From the NCBI RefSeq assembly GCF_007970185.1, contig NZ_CP042431.1, positions 5,456,001 through 5,520,000 on the forward strand: a stretch of 64,000 nt of DNA. The letters run 5' to 3'. Below are positions 11,784-62,862 of this stretch, in pieces. The first letter of the stretch is position 1. Each line of letters begins with the position of its first letter. A program made the translations under genes and the position numbers. Source of the stretch: Pseudobacter ginsenosidimutans (GTDB taxonomy: Bacteria; Bacteroidota; Bacteroidia; Chitinophagales; Chitinophagaceae). The notes under the pieces are model-generated. The model saw only the letters and a program-made list of their open reading frames with translations, did not search any database and had not been told where the DNA came from.

Positions 11784-11940
11784 GCAGTTGCAAAGGGATA
11801 TGAACCGGCGATGTGAAAACAAACCGCCGCGGGAGGATGTCTTCTGAGCTTTGTGGGGAAAGATGAGGAGGTTGGTAATGCTATTGGACTGTTTCGCTTA
11901 TGTTTTCAAGACGCCTTGTCCATATCCCTTCGACAACTGC
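11784..11940 (+). repeat. Structured 3'-UTR element, copy A
   Basis: A non-coding unit of about 157 bases whose ends pair: GCAGTTG / CAACTGC outermost, then AAGGGATATG, GGCG and TGAAAACA against their complements, leaving an interior with the core blocks ACCGCCGCGGGAG and TTCGCTTATG. It starts 11 bases after the ftsE stop, in the same direction. Its first 49 bases match copy B with three differences, and a 17-base piece (11889-11905) recurs exactly in copy C at 62436-62452. Function unknown; it may be an RNA structure or a short mobile/REP-like element. Confidence 0.75.
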
Positions 11941-12082: not shown

Positions 12083-12235
12083 GTTGACAAAGTGATATGG
12101 ACAAGGCGTCTTGAAAACATAAGCGAAGAAGCCTGGCTCTGCACCACCGCTCAATCCAACCAATTACAGCCCATCAATATTCTCCCTCGGCGGTTTGTTT
12201 TCACATCGCCGGTTCATATCCTTTGGCAACTACAA
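12083..12235 (-). repeat. Structured 3'-UTR element, copy B
   Basis: Inverted relative to copy A, it begins about 15-20 bases after the stop of the glycosyltransferase gene and in that gene's sense. The ends again pair (GTTG...CAAAG.GATATG.AC..GGCG...TGAAAACA with the complement). Where B differs from A in the outer stem, the partner arm of B differs in a compatible way. The central 55 bases are poorly conserved. Same conserved blocks as A: ACCGCCGAGGGAG and TTCGCTTATG. Confidence 0.75.
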
Positions 12236-61575: not shown

Positions 61576-61758
61576 TTATTTCTGTAGTGTCTCCAATAAG
61601 TCCTTTGCTGGGATTCTTTTGATATTACCATCCTTATCCCCAATAACTAGAGACTCACCATTAGCTGCGCTGGTTTCAACAAGTTTACGCAAAGCTTTTC
61701 CAATTCCTTGTAAAAGCTTTTCTGATAGTTCGGCAAAATTAGCAGGTTTATTTTCCAT
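61576..61758 (-). CDS. Small protein overlapping the zeta-like kinase gene (60 aa)
   Basis: 60 residues, helical first half (LSEKLLQGIGKALRKLVETS) and a short beta pair ending in GNIKRIPAKDLLETLQK. It starts inside the last 11 bases of the zeta-toxin-like gene, so the two are translationally coupled. Zeta-type kinases are usually kept harmless by a small partner protein; this gene is the obvious candidate, although it comes after the toxin and does not look like the classical epsilon antitoxin. Confidence 0.7.
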   Translation of the reverse strand: MENKPANFAELSEKLLQGIGKALRKLVETSAANGESLVIGDKDGNIKRIPAKDLLETLQK

Positions 61759-62332
61759 GTTGCTTGCTTTGAATTCGAATTACTTCCCAAATATCGGCTT
61801 TTTCGATCATAGTTTCGGTGAGGAAGCCTCCCTGAGCTATCATAACAGGCTGAATATATACATTATTGACAACTATCCAGTTGTTGCAAATTGGGATATA
61901 AAGATTGAGAAGATTAAATATTCCACGATAGTATCTTCGTTTAATTACATCGACGGGAATGTTATGCCCTCCCTTCCTCACTCGCTCAGCAACTCTTTCA
62001 GTTGCTAATTCCGGAGAGTGTAGCCAAAAAAACAGCAAAGTTACCTCATACCCATTTGCTTGAGCTCTTTTAATAAATGAGGTATAGCTTCTGGTTGCTA
62101 ATGTAGTCTCAAATGCGAAATCAATTCTCTCATCAATTAATTGATTTATTCGATGAAGCATAATTCTGCCTGATTCGAACGAAACGCTTTCGGGATTAAA
62201 AGGGGATAGGCCTGCAGCGATACTATCCGCATTTACAAATTCTTTGCAGTTGAGAATTTCCGGGAGTATGGTATAGCTTGCCGTCGTTTTCCCAGCACCA
62301 TTGCATCCTGCTATTATGTATAGATTGGGCAT
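61748..62332 (-). CDS. Zeta-toxin-like P-loop kinase
   Basis: 194 residues. Walker A GCNGAGKTT at residues 9-17, then FVNADSIAAGLSPFNPESVSFESGRIML, FAFETTLATRSY and a switch arginine region (RVAERVRKGGHNIPVDVIKRRYYR). This is the zeta/ATPase-like kinase family; studied zeta toxins phosphorylate UDP-N-acetylglucosamine and block wall synthesis, but chromosomal relatives may phosphorylate other nucleotides. It lies just downstream of structured repeat copy C. Confidence 0.85.
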   Translation of the reverse strand: MPNLYIIAGCNGAGKTTASYTILPEILNCKEFVNADSIAAGLSPFNPESVSFESGRIMLHRINQLIDERIDFAFETTLATRSYTSFIKRAQANGYEVTLLFFWLHSPELATERVAERVRKGGHNIPVDVIKRRYYRGIFNLLNLYIPICNNWIVVNNVYIQPVMIAQGGFLTETMIEKADIWEVIRIQSKQHGK

Positions 62333-62406
62333 TCTTCAATTTATGCCTTTATTCTTAATCCCATTATGTTACCGAGTAAGTATTATTAAATCAGAGTGCC
62401 CCTGCG

Positions 62407-62547
62407 ACGAGCATTTGTAAAAATGAGGCCTCGGAAACATAAGCGAAACAGCTGAAAAAAGATCTTCTGTCCCATCTTTCCATCCACAGTCAAATTCATA
62501 TTCTCCTGCGGCGGTATGTTTCCCAGTCTCATTTTTACAATGCGAGG
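62407..62547 (-). repeat. Structured 3'-UTR element, copy C
   Basis: About 141 bases, starting about 7 bases after the stop of the gene at 62554 and in the same (minus) sense. The outer arms pair over about 15 bases (GCATTTGTAAAAATGAG with CTCATTTTTACAATGC) and the inner arms are GGAAACATA/TATGTTTCC. The inner core is shared with copies A and B: ACCGCCGCAGGAGAATAT and the exact 17-base AAACATAAGCGAAACAG (62436-62452). The outer stem sequence is unlike that of A and B but still complementary, so the pairing, not the sequence, is kept. Confidence 0.72.
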
Positions 62548-62553
62548 AGTCAA

Positions 62554-62862
62554 TTAATTAGGCTGCAGCCTGCTATCCACCGGATCGCCCCATTCCACAG
62601 AATCCAGGCAAGGCACAAAATTAGGATACCTCGGAGTCACCCATTCTTTGAACGCTTCAGCAGTTTTGATGATCGTTCGCTCATGCGTTACATCGTCCAC
62701 AATCGTAAGTGTGAAATCACCAGTTCTCAACACCTGGTAAACAGTAAAGAACCTTCTTGCTCCGGTAGAAAAATAGACTTTCTTGTTATTGTAGTAATCG
62801 TCAGGCCAAAGGCTTTCGAGCCAAACATCATTGATGTACAATTTGTACTGTGGGTTTAACAT
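62554..62862 (-). CDS. Protein of unknown function (102 aa)
   Basis: 102 residues, cytoplasmic, mixed alpha/beta (KLYINDVWLESLWPDDYYNN, FFTVYQVLRTGDFTLTIVDD, TAEAFKEWVTPRYPNFVP), rich in aromatic residues. No family recognised. It is followed directly by element copy C and preceded by a separate terminator at 62909, so it is its own unit. Confidence 0.65.
   Translation of the reverse strand: MLNPQYKLYINDVWLESLWPDDYYNNKKVYFSTGARRFFTVYQVLRTGDFTLTIVDDVTHERTIIKTAEAFKEWVTPRYPNFVPCLDSVEWGDPVDSRLQPN

What the first reader, a model, noticed from the sequence alone, without database searches (positions are those of the whole stretch)
62407..62547. Third copy of the element with a different outer stem: covariation
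Copy C keeps the inner core of A and B (ACCGCCGCAGGAG and an exact 17-base block shared with 11889-11905), but its outer stem is made of unrelated sequence that still pairs with itself. Keeping pairing while changing sequence is the classical sign of selection on folded RNA, or on single-stranded DNA as in REP elements. It also obeys the same position rule: about 7 bases after a stop codon, in the gene's direction.
Basis: partly seen in the sequence, partly recalled or inferred. Interest (0 to 1): 0.82.

Follow-up and report, generated by a model that had tools for sequence, protein, structure and literature searches.

The report
Genus-specific DNA hairpins with changeable stems
The feature is real: it is one of more than a hundred dispersed hairpin elements in this soil bacterium, most with a stem sequence of its own that still pairs letter for letter, often set as facing pairs between genes; it looks more like a DNA repeat family than a folded RNA, and what spread and preserves it is unknown.

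Summary
Confirmed and extended. Copy C (62402-62547, read on the minus strand) is one of 114 copies found in its own genome. The family was found only in Pseudoflavitalea (Chitinophagaceae) and a MAG of the same genus group. Each copy is a ~150 bp hairpin: copy-specific outer stem (median 23 aligned bp), conserved inner stem, loop of nearly constant length. Stem covariation is strong and recurs in a second subfamily.

Against the RNA reading: stem mismatches are G·T 39, A·C 65, other 204 beside 4186 Watson-Crick pairs; no loop helix covaries; stems are as good where the upstream gene points the other way. For it: one gene context shows G·T above A·C (9 to 4), and arms change slowly in place.

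New: copies within 2 kb of each other are always convergent: 38 of 38, 39 of 39 and 20 of 20. 52 of 53 G004 copies have a G000 counterpart. Best reading: a REPIN/MITE-like, non-autonomous DNA repeat family, now nearly static, mobiliser unknown. RAYT and integron tests fail. The stop-codon rule holds only in part.

The parts
62402..62547 (-). Copy C, whole hairpin element (model hit 62423-62529)
   Evidence: 93.8 bits, E 9.0e-21
62527..62547 (-). C: outer left arm (5' arm on the element strand), copy-specific
   Evidence: Fold; arm alignment
62407..62429 (-). C: outer right arm (3' arm on the element strand)
   Evidence: Fold; arm alignment
62515..62523 (-). C: inner stem, 5' side (GGAAACATA on the element strand)
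   Evidence: covarying pairs across copies
62433..62441 (-). C: inner stem, 3' side (TATGTTTCC on the element strand)
62500..62516 (-). C: conserved left box TACCGCCGCAGGAGAAT at the start of the loop
62434..62451 (-). C: conserved right box, TTCGCTTATGTTTC on the element strand; TTCGCTTATG is slow to change between species
62390..62406 (-). C: start of the 3' tail; homology with G004 stops at about 62398, where G004 and G002 go on to CCGCGGGTGCATCAGTG or similar
11786..11940 (+). Copy A (model hit 11809-11917), left member of a convergent pair
12083..12231 (-). Copy B (model hit 12103-12208), right member of the pair; same outer arms as A, different loop
11993..12026 (.). Terminator-like hairpin between A and B (dG -27.6)

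Best explanation
C belongs to a genus-restricted family of non-autonomous dispersed DNA repeats that work like REPINs or MITEs. The half-unit is a ~150 bp hairpin element: copy-specific outer stem, conserved inner boxes (GGCTGnnGAAACAAACC ... TTCGCTTATGTTTCnnAAGGCC), loop of fixed length, and in part of the copies a short 3' tail motif. The commonest arrangement is two half-units facing each other. Shown: the copies, the covariation, the strict convergent order, inheritance in place, slow change of the arms, and filled against empty sites between species. Inferred: that the family spread in a common ancestor through an enzyme acting in trans on the hairpin as DNA, recognising the inner boxes and the duplex rather than the stem's letters; that it is now nearly immobile; and that stem mismatches are removed by selection or by copying from the other arm.
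For: 114 copies in G000; found only in 4 of 6 genomes of one genus and 0 of 33 genomes of other genera, in 65 stretches of one genus group plus 2 unsupported hits in one genome per 84,980 species, and in 3 of 244 family genomes, all in the genus, with a second model. All close pairs convergent: 38 of 38, 39 of 39 and 20 of 20, also between tandem (17) and divergent (2) genes (tally). A/B site filled in G000, G004, G002 and empty in G001, G003, G005. Few G·T pairs. Stem quality independent of gene direction. Tandem repeats of the left arm just outside it in 9 of 114 copies, 0 of 114 on the right, 0 after shuffling.
Against: No mobiliser found: PF01797 shows no link. No target duplication was established. 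52 of 53 G004 copies are orthologous to G000 copies, so movement itself is not seen. Slow change of arms at fixed sites suggests a function at each site, which a dead selfish repeat would not need. Two G001 pairs combine the two subfamilies, which fits separate insertions better than one mobile unit. Copies whose two neighbouring genes both run with the element show G·T 9 against A·C 4, the direction an RNA reading predicts.
Confidence: 0.5

Rival explanations
1. A structured RNA element in untranslated regions (mRNA end protection, RNase III site or the like) present at many genes; the stem is selected in the transcript, perhaps from both sides between convergent genes.
For: Strong covariation; arms change slowly in place; 78 of 114 copies follow a codirectional gene and 19 of 38 pairs lie between convergent genes (tally); minus-strand fold better than plus; G·T 9 against A·C 4 in copies whose both neighbours run the same way.
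Against: Overall G·T 39 against A·C 65 and 2 against 15 in the second subfamily; no covarying helix inside the loop; stems equally good in copies facing away from the upstream gene (p 0.33); no Rfam match.
Confidence: 0.25
2. The covariation is a by-product of mutation: in long palindromes one arm is copied from the other (quasipalindrome correction, recalled from the literature), so stems stay perfect without any function.
For: Strict Watson-Crick exchanges with few wobble states; double Watson-Crick changes 6, 14 and 20 in three species comparisons, of which 3, 9 and 14 are transversions; tandem repeats of left arms.
Against: My argument, not simulated: copying between arms alone should not lower the rate per site, yet arms change 3-6% against 11-15% in the upstream flank. 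Single-sided changes outnumber double ones.
Confidence: 0.15
3. An integron attC-like recombination site, whose stem varies while structure is kept.
For: Variable paired stems with conserved boxes and many positions just after stop codons recall attC (recalled knowledge).
Against: Integron integrase TIGR02249 over its cut-off in 0 of 6 genus genomes; close copies are convergent and never codirectional; no cassette arrays noted at the 76 sites.
Confidence: 0.04

Closest known systems
REPINs, inverted REP doublets with RAYTs (PMC3116915, passages seen)
   Same: Intergenic, about a hundred copies or more, mostly inverted doublets with singlets, taxon-restricted; conserved boxes around a spacer in which length and pairing matter and compensatory changes are common.
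   Different: Here each half is itself a ~150 bp hairpin; the conserved boxes are at the inner end of the stem and the variable paired part is outside; no linked RAYT; pairs are 99-912 bp apart.
Structures flanking TnpA_REP subclass 2.6 genes of Bacteroidetes (PMC6006769, section 25 and passages)
   Same: Same phylum; described as atypical secondary structures without the GT[AG]G foot, with copies elsewhere in the genome.
   Different: The genus genomes with most copies, G004 and G002, have no second PF01797 protein beside the IS200-like one found in all six; no element lies within 9 kb of that gene in G000.
MITE-like small repeats such as ERIC/RU, Correia, bcr1 (recalled; RU seen only as a listing entry, PMC2759123)
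   Same: ~100-170 bp intergenic repeats able to fold.
   Different: As recalled, those share stem or terminal sequence between copies; here the outer stem differs between most copies.
Integron attC sites (recalled)
   Same: Structure kept while stem sequence varies.
   Different: No integron integrase over cut-off; convergent pairs, not codirectional arrays; nearly fixed loop length.

Membership tests
REP/REPIN with RAYT | RAYT (Y1 transposase, PF01797) linked to or co-occurring with the repeats | tested here: not met
   PF01797 in all 6 genus genomes, also in G003 and G005 that have no copies; G004 and G002 hold only the IS200-like protein; in G000 no copy within 9 kb of it
REP/REPIN with RAYT | Inverted doublet arrangement | tested here: met
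   38 of 38 close pairs convergent in G000; 39 of 39 and 20 of 20 in relatives
REP/REPIN with RAYT | GT[AG]G at the foot of the hairpin | tested here: inconclusive
   Not seen as a conserved column in alignment A1, but the foot of these variable stems is not aligned; no dedicated search made
MITE | Terminal inverted repeats shared between copies | tested here: not met
   Arms pair within a copy but differ between copies
MITE | Target site duplication | not tested
   Filled and empty sites seen but too diverged to read a duplication by eye; no formal test
Integron attC site | Integron integrase in the genome | tested here: not met
   TIGR02249 over cut-off in 0 of 6 genus genomes
Integron attC site | Codirectional cassette arrays | tested here: not met
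   No codirectional close pair among 38, 39 and 20
Known structured RNA (Rfam 15) | Match at gathering score | tested here: not met
   0 matches in the window and in 8 loci; one sub-threshold hit judged chance
Structured RNA in general | Covarying helix with G·U tolerance | tested here: inconclusive
   Covariation met; G·U tolerance not seen overall, but G·T 9 to A·C 4 in one gene context
Intrinsic terminator | T-tract directly after the hairpin | tested here: inconclusive
   None noticed by eye after the right arm in the copies printed; no count made

The most novel reading that the evidence does not exclude
A new class of dispersed DNA element read by structure and not by letters: a near-perfect duplex arm of arbitrary sequence joined to conserved inner boxes and a length-measured loop, used as facing pairs and kept letter for letter at each site by an undescribed hairpin-processing or arm-copying machinery of Pseudoflavitalea.
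Probability: 0.25. Interest if true: 0.8.

Novelty: new variant of a known kind. Interest (0 to 1): 0.6.

Why it matters
As far as I recall, dispersed bacterial palindromes share their stem or terminal sequence. Here over a hundred copies mostly carry their own stems, yet pairing is kept with little wobble at orthologous, static sites, so selection, copying between arms and transposition can be told apart by comparing species. The architecture recurs with a different core in a second species, and the fixed convergent order of pairs is a sharp rule that any mechanism must explain.

Tried and rejected
RAYT link: PF01797 in own genome and genus; no link. Integron attC: no integrase over cut-off. 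Rfam: no match at gathering score; one sub-threshold hit. Autonomous version between more distant facing copies (6011295-6016525, 3827863-3834702): only ordinary-looking genes, read by eye from translations. Terminator rule: 5 of 38 pair interiors hold a terminator-like hairpin, 1 in one shuffled set. Coding loop: no formal test; hit length runs 105-110, not in steps of three. Degenerate partners of the 38 solos: none scores above the outer-side control maximum (15 of 20), while about half of the 76 known partners do, so the scan would miss some. Viral contigs, plasmids, phages: 0 matches. Replication-strand bias of solos: 19 leading, 17 lagging, 2 at the skew turning points left out; a hand tally, the skew coming from 76 sampled loci only. 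Literature: seven searches; nothing in their listings describes these repeats. Of PMC6006769 I read section 25 and passages, of PMC3116915 passages; all other papers were listing entries with the start of the abstract.

Limits and dropped rows: one search scored 150 of 2233 first-look candidates, so 114 may be low; counts of 99 are the scoring ceiling; the pattern fits only 47 matches in the 76 G000 loci. One search drops 5 of 114 G000 copies under 50 bits; the relatives' copies there and are hand-pruned from the 145 partly redundant matches (94 typed, 92 kept). Orthologous copies are not independent in the G·T/A·C counts. One search uses 43 of 52, 18 of 26 and 14 of 19 ortholog pairs and defines arms by pairing in one species, which favours low rates; (51 of 52) uses fixed windows. 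One search compares 36 of 38 pairs. The gene caller was my own script; 5 copies overlapped a called gene. One search used stricter filters and did not include G002. In one search the number of pairs and of pair types with changes did not exceed the shuffles (199 and 471 of 500 as high).

Full report
What was checked. The finding says that copy C keeps the inner core of A and B, has a different outer stem that pairs with itself, and sits just after a stop codon. These points hold for C, the core block ACCGCCGCAGGAG with 1 and 2 differences in A and B. The minus strand, on which the element reads, folds far better than shuffles (z -5.85); the plus strand less so (z -3.41).

How many copies, and where. 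BLAST with C and with A gave 19 and 40 matches in the window's own genome G000 (7.80 Mb, one contig). An alignment of 49 distinct copies gave covariance model R1, which finds 114 copies in G000 at E <= 0.01. In 39 genomes including G000, only members of one genus match: G000, G002 and G004 with 99 each (the scoring ceiling), G001 with 12, G003 and G005 with none, and 0 of 33 genomes from other genera. A core pattern searched in one genome for each of 84,980 species gave 65 stretches, all from Pseudoflavitalea rhizosphaerae, Pseudoflavitalea sp. G-6-1-2 and a Chitinophagaceae MAG (BIN25) except two lone hits in Croceitalea and Tepidanaerobacteraceae that R1 does not support. Equal contig lengths tie G004 to P. 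rhizosphaerae and G002 to BIN25; equal R1 scores suggest that G001 is sp. G-6-1-2.

Anatomy. Each copy is: outer left arm of copy-specific sequence; GGCTG; a covarying inner stem (nnGAAACA / TGTTTCnn); a loop that usually starts ACCGsCGCGGGAGGAT and ends TTCGCTTA; then AAGGCC and the outer right arm. The aligned stem is 23 bp at the median (7-34) with 94% Watson-Crick identity at the median. In 24 of 114 copies a motif GTGCAkCA lies 18-75 nt after the hit, against 0 of 114 in the matching stretch before it. Hit length is 105-110 in all 109 copies over 50 bits, although most of the loop changes by 12-24% between G000 and G004.

Covariation. Own arms pair at -32.3 kcal/mol on average, arms of different copies at -16.5. 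For seven inner-stem pairs in 49 copies, 98.3% of cells are paired and the covariation score is 0.449 against 0.189 +/- 0.017 (0 of 500 shuffles), and at most 0.118 when slid; the numbers of pairs and of pair types with changes do not exceed the shuffles, since only four pairs vary. A mutual-information scan of 201 copies puts stem pairs at the top; among its 45 best, the others are columns at most 6 apart, so no loop helix appears. Exchanges are strict at several pairs: A:T 136, G:C 63, G·T 2; C:G 154, T:A 44, T·G 1. One pair does hold T·G in 39 copies.

RNA or DNA. Over 201 copies the stems hold 4186 Watson-Crick pairs and mismatches G·T 39, A·C 65, other 204. A helix selected in a sense transcript should favour G·T. 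The A·C excess (p 0.014, copies not independent) would, if anything, point to the opposite strand. Stem quality is similar for copies close behind a codirectional stop (47, median score 32) and for copies whose upstream gene is opposite (33, median 36; p 0.33). Against this, the counts differ by context: both neighbours running with the element G·T 9, A·C 4; upstream gene with and downstream gene against it G·T 6, A·C 18. Small numbers, but the first is what an RNA reading predicts. A need for the hairpin in RNA of both strands would also suppress both wobbles. I therefore lean to DNA without excluding RNA.

Pairs. In G000, 76 of 114 copies lie in 38 pairs closer than 2 kb, and every pair is convergent, 139-912 bp apart. 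The same holds for 39 of 39 pairs in a hand-pruned list of G004 and G002 loci and 20 of 20 in G001, 99-401 bp apart. By my gene of the 38 pairs lie between convergent genes, 17 between tandem and 2 between divergent genes (tally), so gene direction alone does not force the order. The 38 solos show no partner hairpin above control in a scan that recovers about half of known partners. Pair members are mostly no more alike than random copies: left arms 3, loops 7, right arms 3 of 36 above the 95th percentile; A and B share arms but not loops.

History. 52 of 53 G004 copies have a reciprocal-best partner in G000, and in all 11 G004 loci and 5 of 7 G002 loci tested the flanking genes agree. The A/B site is filled in G000, G004 and G002 and empty in G001, G003 and G005; at the C site G004 has the same stem, G002 a stem changed on both sides, G001 a diverged pair, G003 and G005 nothing. 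Between G000 and G004 fixed windows change by 1-6% on the left (-18 to +11) and 2-8% on the right (-24 to +17), against 11-15% in the upstream flank. Watson-Crick to other Watson-Crick changes number 6, 14 and 20 in the three species comparisons, 3, 9 and 14 of them transversions; single-sided changes are more frequent.

Second subfamily. G001 carries 59 copies found with model R2, built from 23 of its diverged copies: same architecture, different boxes (AAATnTGCCGGGCAG ... GTGCAACAnATTTnAAGGCC). Its stem covaries too: 0.470 against 0.185 +/- 0.022, 0 of 500. In 30 copies own arm is the best partner in 30; Watson-Crick 724, G·T 2, A·C 15, other 38. R2 matched 3 of 244 Chitinophagaceae genomes, all in the genus. 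Two G001 pairs combine one copy of each subfamily.

Odd footprint. In 9 of 114 copies a near-exact 12-mer of the left arm is repeated within 60 nt outside it; 0 of 114 on the right, 0 after shuffling. One of these, at 7634858, is a truncated left end of a second element. This asymmetry is unexplained.

What it is not, as tested. No RAYT or integron integrase goes with it; no plasmid, phage or viral contig matched; no Rfam family matched. I file it as a new variant of dispersed palindromic repeats that works like a REPIN, not as a member of REP/REPIN.

Noticed in passing
window 61748-62332 (-) and 61576-61758 (-): Next to C lies a 194-aa ORF that by its start (GCNGAGKTT) looks like a zeta-toxin-type kinase, with a small ORF behind it. 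In G004 the C tail is intact and the sequence after it differs, so a later rearrangement probably cut off the tail of C in G000. No family search was made for this ORF.
   Followed up: partly
G000:C1:7634858, 7655690, 5454398, 984763 and 5 others: Tandem repeats of the left outer arm just outside the left end only; one is a truncated left end of a second element.
   Followed up: partly
G001:C2:1234883/1235099 and G001:C3:449271/449639: Convergent pairs that join one copy of each subfamily, so pair members can have different origins.
   Followed up: no
L050 1435-1863 (-), G000:C1:7347186: A 142-aa IS200-like Y1 protein (PF01797) lies between ORFs that look like DAHP synthase and AroB (recalled, not searched); a PF01797 protein of similar size is in all six genus genomes, so it may be domesticated.
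   Followed up: partly
window 62554-62862 (-): The 102-aa protein before C has no Pfam match at E 0.001 but is present in all five other genus genomes at 63-100% identity.
   Followed up: partly
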